Shown: positions 20,401 through 25,140 of the stretch, in pieces
How the letters are laid out: every line of letters starts with the position of its first letter
How positions within the stretch are numbered: position 1 is the first letter of the stretch
Source: Deltaproteobacteria bacterium
GTDB taxonomy: Bacteria > SAR324 > NAC60-12
Direction of reading: 5' to 3'
Assembly: GCA_002685535.1 (NCBI GenBank)
Contig: NYXK01000119.1
Coordinates: 53,590 to 91,100, forward strand
DNA: 37,511 bases
The notes under the pieces: generated by a model
Told to the model about the DNA's origin: nothing
The model's database searches: none
The model's input: only the letters and a program-made list of their open reading frames with translations
Position numbers and translations under genes: made by a program

Positions 20401-22555
20401 GAAACAAACAAAGCGAGAGTTAGGACACAACTTCCAATCTCATGGCCGTTTCAACTCGACCACTGTCCAAGACCTTTCCAAGGAAATAGGGATGGTACAA
20501 ACGAAATCCCGAACTCACATCTGTCCTTGGCGCAAGACCACTTATCGAGGTCCTTACACCCAGACCCGAACTCCCAGCATCATGCGGCGCATCCGGCAGC
20601 ACAAAGGGAGCAACACCTGCACCAGCACCATGAGTATTGTCGTCACCTACAGTCCAGCTGCTTTGGCGTTCCACATTTCCGTCTCCTAGTCCTTGCTCCT
20701 CCTCATCGTCATCGCTCACACGCTCGACCAAACCAAACCTCTGCACAGCAACTCCAGTTCCAGCATCATCACCAGTAGTAGTAATATCACCTCCATCCCT
20801 AGCACCATTCCCCTCATTGACTCCACCCTCCCGGGTATCTCCTCTCCACACTAAATTGATCAAGTCAGCCCTCTCCCTCACCACTCTCTCCCCATCATAC
20901 TCCCTCCTCGGAACATCTATACCCTGCGGATGACTAAACATAGCTGGTGCCCTTTCTCCTTCTTTGATTATCGGTAGGCGCTCCTCGGGTGGTACGGCTG
21001 GTACGAAAGGGCTTTTGACTTGTTTGGGACTGCGGGGTGGGTTTAGTTCCGAGGATTGAGATTGAGATTGTGGTTGTGGGAGTGGCATGGGTCTCAATGG
21101 GGAGCGAGGTGATGATGCTGAGGATTCACTGGCCTGCGTGAATGCGGCCGTGGTGCGTTGTGGTGGTGAGGAGGGGAGCGTGGGCAGACTGGATGGGATG
21201 GGTGTTAGTGAGAATGGTGGCGGAGAGGACGTAGCAGCTGCTAGAGAGGCTCCCTCAGCATCTTGGGGTTTGATCGTGTCGGAATATCTGGATCCAGAGG
21301 GCTCGGTTTGACCTGGTGGTGTGACGGGAGTGTCTGCAGTCGTAGGTTCAGTTGAATCTGACGGCTTGTAGGGGACAGATGGCTCTGAGGCTGTGGATTG
21401 TTCATCTACACTGCTATCTTGCTCTCGGGCTTCTGGTGCTGTGGGTGTAGATGTCTCCTCCGCATCCTCGCCTGTAGCTGTAGTACCGAAAGGCGCAGAA
21501 GTCACAAGCGGAAAAGGAGGCATATTCGGCATATCAGCTGGCTGTCGACTAGGCGTCGTAGCCCCTGATCCAGTAGCTTTTCCCTTTCTCTTACGAACTC
21601 GCTTCTTCTTCGATTTGATGGTTGTATTCGAAGGCTCTCCTCCCGCGCCTGAAGCGCCGGATGCAGAATGATGTCCATCGTCATCATCATCGTCGTCGTT
21701 GCCGGCAGGAGAAATTCCTTGGCCTGGGCTCTGGCTGGGGAGGCTTGCCATACCGACGAAGAGTGGATCTTGAGGGCCGATGTAGTCATCGAATGGAGAC
21801 TTTACAGGAGTTGAGCCGAGAAGTGTGTCGAGATGGTAGATTGCTTGGTGGGGGACAAGACCTTCTCTCTCCCCCACATTACCCTCACTCACATCAACTT
21901 CTCCCTCGATCTTCAACTTCTGTGTCACAGCGTCTTTTTGTTTGTGGTGCCTTTCGTCGCTCTTGTTATGTGGTGCTTCAATCGAATTGAATCTTCCCGG
22001 GTACTTCCTTATTGCAGCTTTCAAGTAACCTGGAATGGCCTTTCCTTTCTCTTTGCCCGCCTCATTTTCATTGCAAATCTCTTCATCCAGAACTGCCTCC
22101 TCTGAAATCTCAATTTTGGTAAACGATGCACACGAATCATTTGACTGATGGTCTCGCTTCTTCGGAATACAAGGGGACTTCACTTGGAGGGGAGAGACCG
22201 CTTGAGCGTTGATAGTTTCGGAACCGGCACGCGGCTCAAGTGCCAATGACGTTTCATGAGACTGTGCAAAAGGCCGGACTAGGAAATATGCAAGCGTTTG
22301 ATACTGTAAATGGGTTGTTCTCGGTGGTGAGATTGGTGGAAGAGGGACGCCAGGTGATGGACCTGAGGGCGAGGTTGTGGCGAGGTGACTCGAGATGTGA
22401 GGACTTGTCGTTTTGTTAGGCAGTTTCCATGATTCGGTATCGATATCCATGCATTCTGCTTCTGGAGCAGTGTGATTTCCTGCGGTATCTACCGATACGA
22501 TGGGTCGATCTTCACAATGGCCCTCCTTCTCGCTTGGATGATAATTCCCCGCCAT
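17431..22555 (-). CDS. 1519-aa protein: disordered N-half, long coiled coil, helical C-terminal domain
   Basis: Four exons (22555-20519, 20056-18151, 18094-17552, 17504-17431) join to 4560 nt, exactly 1520 codons. The first 679 residues are low-complexity: Ser/Pro/Thr-rich with an Asp run (seven D near residue 285), a basic patch KSKKKRVRKRKGK and SQSQSQSS. Exon 2 is a near-continuous coiled coil (about residues 735-1300), ending in a Lys/Arg/Glu-rich part. Exon 3 has alpha-helical hairpins (QAFLWAGIANFYHGQSEI) that look TPR-like, and the tail is acidic (EEDEDLGTEEEQEAIEV). Such a protein could be a scaffold or cytoskeletal/nuclear tether; I recognise no named family. The first intron would be 462 bp, far longer than its neighbours. 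Both its ends are phase 0 with good sites (GAT|GTGAGT, ATCCAG|ATT). The alternative is two genes split in that gap. Confidence 0.75.
20057..20518 (-). other. Putative 462-bp intron of the coiled-coil gene, or a gap between two genes
   Basis: The donor GTGAGT directly follows the last well-composed codons of exon 1 (APRTD). Reading through would add about 33 odd residues before a stop at 20420. The acceptor ATCCAG starts the IPLPPEVLTF exon. No coding frame in between fits both sides. Confidence 0.5.
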
Positions 22556-23059: not shown

Positions 23060-23646
23060 CTATGTGCGCCTGTTCATCTGATGCATGTTCCTCAAATGCC
23101 TCGTCAAATTCCACTCTCTAGCAAATGATTTCCCGTTTCCCACTACCAGTGGATACTCGCATTCGCCAATCGGACAATAATGGACTTGCTTCTCATGCAC
23201 ATCATTCACGTGTCGATTGAGGTGCGTGATGGTACCAAAGCCTCTATCGCACTGCTGGCACTGGTGCCGTTTGGTATGATATCGCTGATGCTTACTGTTG
23301 AGCATTGTATCAGCACGACTCAGGAAGAAACTACGGGGTGGAAAAGAGGAGTTACTTGCCGAAGAGCATTACTGGACGGAAAGCTTTTAAGACATGTTTG
23401 ATCCTCGCATTGGAATCCCTTTGCTGTGTTTTTCTTGCGCAGTACTGACGCAGTGGGCGTGCGTGCCTGTAACCCGCGGGACGGCCGAGTGGTAACAGAG
23501 TCGTCAATTAGTTGAGGAGAGCCGGAAGTAAGAGATCGGGTAGAACGTCGACGAAGGCGATTCAAAGATCCCAACAGTGTAGCTGACTTTCCTCTATGTA
23601 ACTCCTTCGGTCCCGGAGTTGAACTTCTTGGTGGTAAATGAGGCAA
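23060..23646 (-). CDS. C2H2 zinc-finger protein with three fingers; 5' end uncertain, likely fused to the ubiquitin-like part
   Basis: Exons 23646-23360 and 23294-23060 encode a basic, Ser/Arg-rich linker ([20 protein letters not shown]) followed by three C2H2 fingers. Finger 1 is CEDQTC...KHQRYH, finger 2 [20 protein letters not shown], and finger 3 CPIGEC...LTRHLRNMH. Finger 1 is complete only if a GC-AG intron (GCAAGT at 23359 to CAACAG at 23295, 65 bp) is removed: the joined codons read LRKHQ and give C-x4-C-x12-H-x3-H. No GT donor there gives this spacing. The frame is open up to 23703 but contains no ATG; its upstream end overlaps the second ubiquitin-like unit in the neighbouring frame. 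The fingers are probably DNA-binding, as is known for the family. A start codon is missing, so expression depends on how the upstream part is read. Confidence 0.6.
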
Positions 23647-23989
23647 GAATATCTTCGGCTTCTTCGATTCTGGCTTTAAGGTAGCGAATGGTGTCAGATG
23701 ATTCTAGCCGGACTGTGGTCTCTCTCCCGTCTGGAAGTTGGACTGTGACATCAAATCTCCCATCGCCACCACCGCGGAGTCGTCTGACCAGATGAAGAGT
23801 GCATTCTTTTTCGATGTTGTATTTTGCGAGACTTCGCCCGTCCTCGAGCTGTTGACCTGCAAACATGAGACTTTGTGCACCAGGTAGCTCCTCTCCCTTG
23901 ATGAAAAGCCCTTTTTTTTTCACACGATCGACAGGCTCGACTTCTAATGTGATCGCCCTGCTTGAGGGGGTTTTAACAAAAATCTACAT
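23594..23989 (-). pseudogene. Divergent ubiquitin unit plus half of a second ubiquitin-like unit; in-frame stop at codon 2
   Basis: The minus strand reads ATG TAG ATT TTT GTT AAA ACC from 23989: ubiquitin's MQIFVKT with Gln2 replaced by a stop. After that the frame is open to 23594. The first unit (23983-23768, 72 residues) includes [34 protein letters not shown] and RLRGG. A second unit follows at once ([20 protein letters not shown] then [16 protein letters not shown]), but it breaks off and continues in the +1 frame as the zinc-finger linker. Compared with ubiquitin, K11 is R, K48 is Q and I44 is M, while K6, K63 and RLRGG are kept; two residues are missing near K29-K33. The TAG could instead be the end of an intron (TGTAG|ATT), since many fungal ubiquitin genes have an intron near codon 2. 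I found no upstream exon with an ATG and a phase-0 consensus donor, so a broken gene is the simpler reading. Confidence 0.6.
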
Positions 23990-24423
23990 CTTAGACGAAG
24001 TGCAGATCGAGTTGACAAGAAATTCTGGCGACTTTGTTCAAAAAATACAATGTCCTGCGTGGAAGAGAGTACTCGTACAGCATCTGCGTTCTGGGGACAT
24101 TCTGATATACAGGCGAGGCTCTCGGGTAACGTGGAGGTGGTGAGGCCTCACAGTTCGCAGCTTGTGCACCCCGCGCCAGATCTTTCCAGCCACAATGTCG
24201 GGGCAACCATGGTGTGATTCGGAGGGGAGGCCTCACAGCCCAAGCCCCCACCAAAAGATGGCAATCGCTATGTGATACGAGCGCTACAAAGGAGTGGCCG
24301 GCTCAATACCGTGGCCAACGAATTATTTATCTTCTCAGCTGACGATTTCTAGCACCCCAGATCCTGCGCAGCTGAGCAGTGCTTGACCTTCTTGTTGAAA
24401 ACCACCTGTCCCGTGTATCGGCT
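23990..24423. other. Promoter-side region of the ubiquitin-like/zinc-finger locus
   Basis: No coding exon could be placed. The stretch holds only three other minus-strand ATGs (near 24083, 24101 and 24210), none with a good phase-0 donor, and a repeated GAGGCCTCACAG element. Confidence 0.4.
24140..24238. repeat. Two copies of GAGGCCTCACAG, one within a perfect 12-bp palindrome
   Basis: The 12-mer GAGGCCTCACAG occurs at 24142-24153 and 24227-24238, 85 bp apart in the same orientation. The first copy lies in the perfect palindrome GTGAGGCCTCAC (24140-24151), a shape expected for a dimeric DNA-binding protein. It lies upstream of the ubiquitin-like locus. A regulatory role is inference. Confidence 0.45.
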
Positions 24424-25140
24424 CTACCGATGTACACAAACATCAAAGCTCATTTTCCTCGCACTCGTAATCTTATCCACTGAAAGTAACCTTAATTCCT
24501 CCAAAATCTCCTTGCTTTCTTGCTCGTCAATATCACGCATGATAGATTCTAGCTGATGACCCCACGCCCTGATAGTCGCAGCTTTCGCAACCGCTAGCCT
24601 AGCCTCCTTCCACCTCTTCAGATTCATCAAACAATACGTGCGATACAGGTGGCATTTCGACACCGTATCCCACAGCTCGTATGCCGTTGCTCTGGCTAAA
24701 GAATCGTCGACCAGACTAAGTGCACGGTCGAAAAACTCGGAGTCTGAGGTTCCTGTCCCGTGAGCCATGAGTGCAACGACGCGGAGGAGATCGTTATTGA
24801 TGCGACAATGCTCGTCATTGTTGCTTTTGTTATTGTAGTACTTTGGTAGGCTTGGATCAGGCGTCAGGGTACAGGGGAACCTATTGATGGGGAATGGTAT
24901 GGCGGTTTCAGGTGGGTTAAATGGCGAATCCATAGAACGCGGAGGTGTTGACGCTGGCGTCAAGGTGCTGGTTCGTGGATCGGAGAAGATGGGCGAGTGC
25001 GGGGGTGTGTAGGTCTCGAGACGATTGGTTGAGTGAGAAGATTGTGGTGGTGTTAAGGGGAACATGGGGAAAGATGTTTTGCGTGTTATCTTGTTTCGTG
25101 GTGTTGAAGGGGGAGGTGTTCTAGTGGGTTCTGAATGCAT
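24424..25140 (-). CDS. Protein of unknown function: Pro/Ser/Thr-rich N-half, TPR-like helical C-half
   Basis: An intronless frame of 239 codons runs from ATG 25140 to TAG 24424 (238 aa). The first 100 residues are rich in TPP/SP motifs (TPPPSTP, TPPQSS, TPPHSP, STPP), typical of a disordered, possibly phosphorylated region. Residues about 115-215 are helical, with alternating paired helices (FFDRALSLVDDSLARATAYE, then HLYRTYCLMNLKRWKEARLA) that resemble a TPR repeat. An upstream TTG extension in the same frame was not used. I cannot name the family. The helical half is similar in style to the C-terminal domain of the coiled-coil gene at 17431-22555. Confidence 0.65.
   Translation of the reverse strand: MHSEPTRTPPPSTPRNKITRKTSFPMFPLTPPQSSHSTNRLETYTPPHSPIFSDPRTSTLTPASTPPRSMDSPFNPPETAIPFPINRFPCTLTPDPSLPKYYNNKSNNDEHCRINNDLLRVVALMAHGTGTSDSEFFDRALSLVDDSLARATAYELWDTVSKCHLYRTYCLMNLKRWKEARLAVAKAATIRAWGHQLESIMRDIDEQESKEILEELRLLSVDKITSARKMSFDVCVHR

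What the first reader, a model, noticed from the sequence alone, without database searches (positions are those of the whole stretch)
23060..23989. Ubiquitin-like units apparently fused to a three-finger C2H2 protein
The minus strand reads a ubiquitin-like unit ending in RLRGG, half of a second unit, then a basic linker and three C2H2 fingers, with no ATG for the finger part. Known ubiquitin fusions carry ribosomal proteins (S27a, L40); a ubiquitin-like/C2H2 fusion would be a new layout. If RLRGG were cut by a deubiquitinase, a half-ubiquitin/zinc-finger protein would be released. It could equally be a decaying ubiquitin fusion gene.
Basis: partly seen in the sequence, partly recalled or inferred. 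Interest (0 to 1): 0.75.

Follow-up and report, generated by a model that had tools for sequence, protein, structure and literature searches.

The report
Possible fungal ubiquitin/zinc-finger fusion relic
In a piece of fungal DNA that ended up in a bacterial genome bin, one and a half altered ubiquitin copies lie directly in front of a three-zinc-finger coding stretch, but no intact start and no ordinary splice was found to join them, so this looks more like a relic of a fused gene than a proven working fusion.

Summary
The minus strand holds a ubiquitin-like unit ending in RLRGG (68.6 bits to Pfam ubiquitin), half of a second unit, and three C2H2 fingers. But the ubiquitin and first-finger parts are in different frames, joinable only by a frameshift or an intron with a very poor donor (GTTACA). 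In all, 72 in-frame GT..AG joins exist there, so joinability proves little. IFVKT is preceded by ATG-TAG: a lost MQ start or an intron end; I found no well-supported first exon. The ubiquitin fold looks damaged: helix 1 is missing from the model of unit 1, and unit 2 stops at residue 36. Yet the frame stays open for 129 codons; simulated neutral decay rarely kept even the 74 codons of one unit open. Pyrimidine-rich tracts precede each presumed exon. The DNA appears to be fungal contamination in a bacterial MAG; no fungal genome collection was available and no orthologue was found. My best reading is a chimeric, probably decaying ubiquitin/C2H2 fusion gene; a live fusion is not excluded. Ubiquitin fusions, some to zinc RING fingers, are known in algae (PMC6332867).

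The parts
23768..23983 (-). Ubiquitin-like unit 1, IFVKT...RLRGG (72 aa; residues 3-76 with a net two-residue deletion after the helix 1 region)
   Evidence: Pfam ubiquitin 68.6 bits; own-genome profile hit 47.1 bits; alignment A2
23648..23749 (-). N-terminal half of a second ubiquitin-like unit (VTVQLPDG...EDI, residues 3-36)
   Evidence: 21.8 bits, profile 1-36; 17.8 bits, i-E 0.0022; 14 of 34 residues identical to the L051 ubiquitin, 7 of 8 core positions hydrophobic
23984..23989 (-). ATG TAG directly before IFVKT: either a start whose second codon is a stop (usual is ATG CAG/CAA), or an intron acceptor ending in TAG
   Evidence: sequence; 76 of 80 ubiquitin loci kept from genome contigs have ATGCAA or ATGCAG here
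23984..24078 (-). candidate 5' intron (donor GTACGAGT, acceptor TAG), T-rich near its end; out of phase with the adjoining ATG
   Evidence: inference
23467..23602 (-). candidate intron joining the ubiquitin frame to the finger frame, phase 0 to 0 (poor donor GTTACA, good acceptor TTACAG with CTAAT upstream)
   Evidence: inference
23360..23466 (-). exon with basic end of the linker and most of C2H2 finger 1
23295..23359 (-). 65-nt intron in finger 1: GC-AG form (GCAAGT..CAG) gives LRKHQRYH; an overlapping GT-AG form (23355-23291, GTAACT..AAG) gives LRQHQRYH
23060..23294 (-). rest of finger 1, fingers 2 and 3, stop codon
   Evidence: Pfam zf-C2H2 on spliced letters 43.3 bits, 3 stretches
24424..25140 (-). 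upstream gene on the same strand, ATG at 25140, stop at 24424; no Pfam match; one possible donor of a 5' exon (GTACAT at 24435)

Best explanation
A ubiquitin-type tandem array of a filamentous fungus was broken in the middle of its second unit and joined to the exons of a three-finger C2H2 gene, making a chimeric gene of 1.5 diverged ubiquitin units plus fingers. In its present form the locus most likely no longer makes a full fusion protein: the start is lost or unrecognisable, helix 1 of the ubiquitin fold is damaged, and the junction lacks a proper splice donor. Shown: the parts, their order and frames, the missing start and the missing consensus junction. Inferred: the recombination, the single-gene history and the decay. 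If any product is made, the simplest is a finger protein whose ubiquitin half is only an N-terminal extension. RLRGG is kept, but the L8-I44-V70 patch and K48 (their roles in ubiquitin are recalled, not from a call) have become P8-M44-V70 and Q48, so I do not expect normal ubiquitin behaviour.
For: Half a unit abuts finger-side sequence with no gap. The locus is spaced as one gene: about 430 bp to the upstream stop at 24424 and about 500 bp to the next ORF's first ATG at 22555. No usable start for either part. Junction donor GTTACA scores -5.08 on my donor scale, a value that 72% of all GTs reach. Unit 1 modelled alone with 42 of the 80 fetched ubiquitins keeps strands but no helix 1 (best of five models mean pLDDT 75.7, two of five below 39; residues 24-26 below 50). 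The 129-aa ORF with 20 ubiquitins models poorly (43.8). No intact ubiquitin was modelled as a control.
Against: Simulated neutral decay of one ubiquitin unit (74 codons) to the same identity kept an open frame in 19% of 3000 runs counting stops only, 1.9% with one indel per 20 substitutions, 0.33% with one per ten and 0.03% with three per twenty. Core residues are better kept than others (12 of 14 against 31 of 58 identical, Fisher P 0.025; 3.6% of simulated runs kept as many), although the number of hydrophobic core positions, 13 of 14, is unremarkable (24% of runs). The finger cysteines and histidines are intact. So decay, if any, is recent, or the gene is alive with an unrecognised 5' exon.
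Confidence: 0.42

Rival explanations
1. A working fusion gene: an upstream exon is spliced to TAG|ATT at 23983, the ubiquitin exon is spliced from 23602 to 23467, and the finger exons follow. The product is a UBL1-half UBL-C2H2 nuclear protein, possibly cut after RLRGG by a deubiquitinase.
For: The joins are phase-compatible and give one 240-aa open reading from I3 to the stop. T-rich/pyrimidine-rich tracts precede 23983, 23466 and 23294, as intron ends would. 2% of 136-nt coding tiles are as pyrimidine- and T-rich as 23602-23467. The linker scores like a non-coding frame. Open frame and conserved core residues.
Against: Donor GTTACA is very weak; 72 in-frame joins from 12 donors between 23890 and 23597 exist, two of them from this donor, so an in-frame join is expected by chance. 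41 regex-picked canonical introns average only 0.50 pyrimidine, and the tracts at 24300-24200 and near 24120 are also pyrimidine-rich (0.55-0.58). No canonical one-intron start: phase-0 GT donors to 23983 are GTTGCC, GTCGCC or lie at the end of the upstream gene. Helix 1 missing in the model. No relative found.
Confidence: 0.25
2. Two unrelated neighbours: a dead ubiquitin fragment and a C2H2 gene whose first exon lies elsewhere (inside or upstream of the ubiquitin remnant).
For: Different reading frames. The finger frame is open for 79 codons before 23467; a first-order random model gives this in 4.5% of cases, though 12.5% of random points in the window show it too. The best-scoring acceptor of the region, 23669, lies inside the second ubiquitin unit.
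Against: No canonical 5' exon for the finger gene either: the best-scoring of 125 single-intron models use introns of 422-496 nt. The linker has the codon scores of a non-coding frame (-0.03 to -0.07 per codon). Little room for a separate promoter.
Confidence: 0.23
3. Assembly or base-calling error created the stop before IFVKT and the frame change, and the real gene is intact.
For: The contig comes from a metagenome bin (inferred); a nine-A run lies in unit 1.
Against: No N in the window. The altered helix and truncated second unit cannot be explained by one or two errors. The frame around the A run stays open.
Confidence: 0.07

Closest known systems
Ubiquitin fusions of Bigelowiella natans and Guillardia theta (PMC6332867; section 4 and passages seen)
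   Same: Ubiquitin units beside unrelated partners, including 'zinc ring finger' partners with 1 or 2 ubiquitins; genes with 1.5 ubiquitin units occur; units within one gene may be non-identical
   Different: The zinc partner there is a RING-type domain, not three C2H2 fingers; those authors cite RNA-seq support; here frame and start are not intact; the organism is a fungus
Ubiquitin-IMP fusions of fungi (PMC6332867, passages)
   Same: Ubiquitin fused to a non-ribosomal partner, reported in 63 of 88 fungal species examined
   Different: Partner is a membrane-protein family and in most fungi with it the ubiquitin lies inside it
Ubiquitin-S27a and ubiquitin-L40 (general knowledge)
   Same: N-terminal ubiquitin ending in RLRGG followed by another protein
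   Different: Partner is not ribosomal; ubiquitin unit strongly diverged; 1.5 units
UBL gene at G000:C110 in the same assembly (L035:15097-16233, minus)
   Same: One full UBL (37.3 bits) followed by what may be the beginning of a second (weak: 11.0 bits, i-E 0.27)
   Different: Long N-terminal part, stop soon after, no fingers seen; only 21.9 bits to the window ORF

Membership tests
Ubiquitin (PF00240) | Sequence match above the curated cut-off | tested here: met
   unit 1 with the ORF: 68.6 bits against 25.4; half unit 2 alone 21.8 bits, below it
Ubiquitin (PF00240) | Complete beta-grasp fold with helix 1 | tested here: not met
   Model of unit 1 has strands but no helix at residues 18-33, with lower confidence there; it still matches ubiquitin in the PDB (2znv_C, TM 0.80 by query); a prediction only, no control model
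Ubiquitin (PF00240) | C-terminal RLRGG | tested here: met
   sequence
Ubiquitin fusion protein (Ub-extension) | One continuous (or consensus-spliced) reading frame from a start codon through ubiquitin into the partner | tested here: not met
   frames differ, no well-supported start, no consensus donor at the junction
Ubiquitin fusion protein (Ub-extension) | Transcript covering both parts | not testable with these tools
   no RNA data
Ubiquitin fusion protein (Ub-extension) | Fusion conserved in relatives | tested here: inconclusive
   no relative in viral contigs, no fingers near the 80 of 426 genome-contig loci kept, none but the window's own in overlapping sets of 192, 41 and 52 prokaryote genomes, apart from ubiquitin units in one; no fungal collection was available
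C2H2 zinc-finger protein | C2H2 fingers over the Pfam cut-off | tested here: met
   spliced letters 43.3 bits against 25.2, three stretches; unspliced fingers 2-3 alone 25.2 bits, just at the cut-off

The most novel reading that the evidence does not exclude
A live fungal gene encodes a protein with 1.5 diverged ubiquitin units in front of three C2H2 fingers, spliced through non-consensus introns, so that a transcription factor carries, or is released from, a ubiquitin-like tag.
Probability: 0.2. Interest if true: 0.6.

Novelty: new variant of a known kind. Interest (0 to 1): 0.3.

Why it matters
If live, it would add a DNA-binding partner to the short list of ubiquitin fusions and offer a way in which a transcription factor could be made together with, or matured from, a ubiquitin-like part. 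If a relic, it shows how a ubiquitin array can be broken mid-unit and land in front of another gene, a plausible route by which such fusions arise.

Tried and rejected
Second half of unit 2: by eye, frame 2 of 23640-23565 seemed to echo QLEDGR..ESTLHL, but a ubiquitin C-half profile scored that ORF -0.7 bits; rejected. RIP damage as the cause of the stop: the dinucleotide indices are ordinary (TA/AT 0.55 in the ubiquitin stretch, 0.58 in the window); rejected. Codon usage to choose frames: bias in this fungus is weak. The in-frame mean is about +0.05 against -0.07 off frame per codon; the ubiquitin ORF scored +0.068, the linker -0.03 to -0.07 by stretch, and the exon of fingers 2-3 -0.087 in its own frame. 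Synonymous-only sums were +0.74 for unit 1, -0.57 for half unit 2, -2.69 for the linker ORF and +1.63 for fingers 2-3 in their own frames, too small to decide. Splice-site ranking: too many alternatives (597 one- and two-intron 5' models; good acceptors also inside the ubiquitin region). The donor and acceptor weights were typed from recall of fungal consensus sites, not trained. A background check on this fungal DNA showed the clearest excess before a branch site for GTAAGT (38 of 187) and GTATGT (26 of 192), while GTTACA had 14 of 108 against 7 of 108 for the control. Paralogues of the fingers in the same assembly: best hit outside the locus E 0.048. Introns in other fungal ubiquitin genes: two searches (listings only) gave nothing that I could use. 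Literature: no fungal ubiquitin/C2H2 fusion appeared in the listings (open-licence papers; listings capped at 10-20). Of these works only PMC11354881 (passages) and, through it, PMC6332867 (passages and section 4) were opened. A remark in PMC11354881 about a 'zinc finger protein' fused to ubiquitin cites two papers; the one I opened calls it a zinc RING finger.

Full report
What the DNA is. The window is the last 37.5 kb of a 91.1-kb contig (G000:C123) of an assembly held as a prokaryote genome (7.28 Mb, 244 contigs, completeness 87.7%, contamination 4.35%). The gene content looks like that of a filamentous fungus: the assembly holds 38 Zn2Cys6 (PF00172) matches on 25 contigs, and none of the 14 control genomes of that search has one. 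The 16 same-genus genomes are 1.3-3.3 Mb, although some same-family genomes reach 9.7 Mb, so a large part of G000, probably several Mb, is fungal contamination (inference). The fungus could not be named.

What is there. On the minus strand, 23983-23597 is one open frame of 129 aa. It holds one ubiquitin-like unit (68.6 bits) ending in RLRGG and then 34 residues of a second unit (21.8 bits; i-E 0.0022 in about 430 kb of fungal six-frame translation). The frame ends at a TAG at 23596-23594. Finger 1 is in the frame of ORF 23703-23320, fingers 2-3 in the frame of ORF 23368-23060. A 65-nt intron inside finger 1 joins these, either as GC-AG (23359-23295, giving LRKHQRYH) or as an overlapping GT-AG with an AAG acceptor (23355-23291, giving LRQHQRYH). 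The spliced letters match zf-C2H2 three times (43.3 bits). Read by eye, the spacings are C-x4-C-x12-H-x3-H, C-x2-C-x12-H-x4-H and C-x4-C-x20-H-x4-H.

Start. Before IFVKT stands ATG TAG. In 76 of the 80 ubiquitin loci kept from prokaryote contigs the two codons before IFVKT are ATG CAA or ATG CAG, so this may be a lost MQ start, one base away. But the stretch before it is T-rich (T up to 0.38 in 60-nt windows) and ends in TAG, so it may equally be an intron end. A good donor close upstream is GTACGAGT at 24078, preceded by ATGCT, which is out of phase. The phase-0 GT donors to 23983 are ATG|GTTGCC (24207), AAA|GTCGCC (24032) and several at the end of the upstream gene, e.g. GTACAT at 24435 with a 452-nt intron. 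One- and two-intron models number 597. None is convincing.

Junction. The ubiquitin frame and the finger frame can be joined by an intron 23602-23467: phase 0 to 0, acceptor TTACAG with CTAAT upstream, 240 aa open in all. This stretch is more pyrimidine- and T-rich (0.59 and 0.29) than its flanks and resembles the 65-nt intron (0.62 and 0.31); 2% of 136-nt coding tiles are as rich in both. The linker read in the finger frame has codon scores like a non-coding frame, which agrees with an intron. Against this, 41 canonical-looking introns picked by pattern from the same DNA average only 0.50 pyrimidine and 0.28 T, other stretches upstream of the ORF are also pyrimidine-rich, the donor GTTACA is poor, and 72 in-frame GT..AG joins from 12 donors exist between the two frames. 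A one-base frameshift would also join them. None of these is shown.

Is the ubiquitin part alive? Unit 1 keeps 43 of 72 aligned residues. Changes cluster in residues 20-42, with a net loss of two residues, while residues 43-76 stay close to ubiquitin (alignment A2). With 42 of the 80 fetched ubiquitins in the alignment, the best of five models of unit 1 (mean pLDDT 75.7; the other four 69.9, 68.7, 38.5, 38.1) lacks helix 1, although it still matches ubiquitin structures (TM up to 0.80). The whole ORF, with 20 ubiquitins, models badly (43.8). I ran no model of an intact ubiquitin as a control. On the other side, simulated neutral decay of one ubiquitin unit to the same identity kept an open frame in 19% of 3000 runs counting stops only, and in 1.9%, 0.33% and 0.03% with 0.05, 0.10 and 0.15 indels per substitution. 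Core positions (a list recalled, not from a call) are identical at 12 of 14 against 31 of 58 elsewhere (P 0.025; 3.6% of runs kept as many), but the count of hydrophobic core positions is not unusual (24% of runs). I take this to mean that selection acted through much of the divergence; either function was lost recently or it continues.

Relatives. No relative of the fingers or of the ubiquitin ORF was found in viral contigs. An alignment query of genome contigs gave 426 loci that encode a relative, of which the best 80 were kept; the 80 are near-normal ubiquitins, 51-59% identical to unit 1, and the fingers match nothing in them at E 1 or better. Among 192 relatives of G000 the only other match was a bacterial genome with ubiquitin units; searches of 41 order and 52 phylum genomes, which overlap with that set, found only the window itself. 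These collections hold fungal DNA only by contamination, so absence means little.

What is known. PMC6332867 (section 4 and passages seen) lists 22 and 10 ubiquitin fusions in two algae, among them zinc RING-finger partners with one or two ubiquitins, and genes of 1.5 units; it reports ubiquitin-IMP fusions in 63 of 88 fungal species. A ubiquitin/C2H2 combination did not appear in the listings of my searches, which cover open-licence papers only.

Verdict. The two parts are real and adjacent; the fusion as a protein is not shown. My ranking: chimeric and probably decaying fusion gene 0.42, live fusion 0.25, unrelated neighbours 0.23, assembly error 0.07.

Noticed in passing
window 1-37511 (G000:C123:53590-91100): The window looks like filamentous-fungal DNA inside an assembly held as a prokaryote; G000 is 7.28 Mb while the 16 same-genus genomes are 1.3-3.3 Mb (some same-family ones are larger), and 25 of its 244 contigs carry Zn2Cys6 matches. 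The contamination estimate of 4.35% does not show it.
   Followed up: partly
L040-L119: Near-perfect ubiquitin preceded by a signal-peptide-like hydrophobic stretch (a simple count rule, not a signal-peptide program) in 64 of the 80 loci kept of 426, in records named Dyella, Sphingomonas, Rhodobacter, Conexibacter and rumen Clostridia among others; the open frame runs more than 150 aa from the start of ubiquitin in 64 of 80. Looks like widespread exported ubiquitin-domain proteins in Bacteria; one paper search (listing only) named none clearly.
   Followed up: partly
   Followed up: no
L035:15097-16233 (G000:C110): A 378-aa fungal open frame with a UBL (37.3 bits) followed by what may be the start of a second UBL (11.0 bits) and then a stop: perhaps another 1.5-unit arrangement.
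   Followed up: partly
window 23295-23359: Likely GC-AG intron (GCAAGT..CAG) inside a zinc finger.
   Followed up: partly
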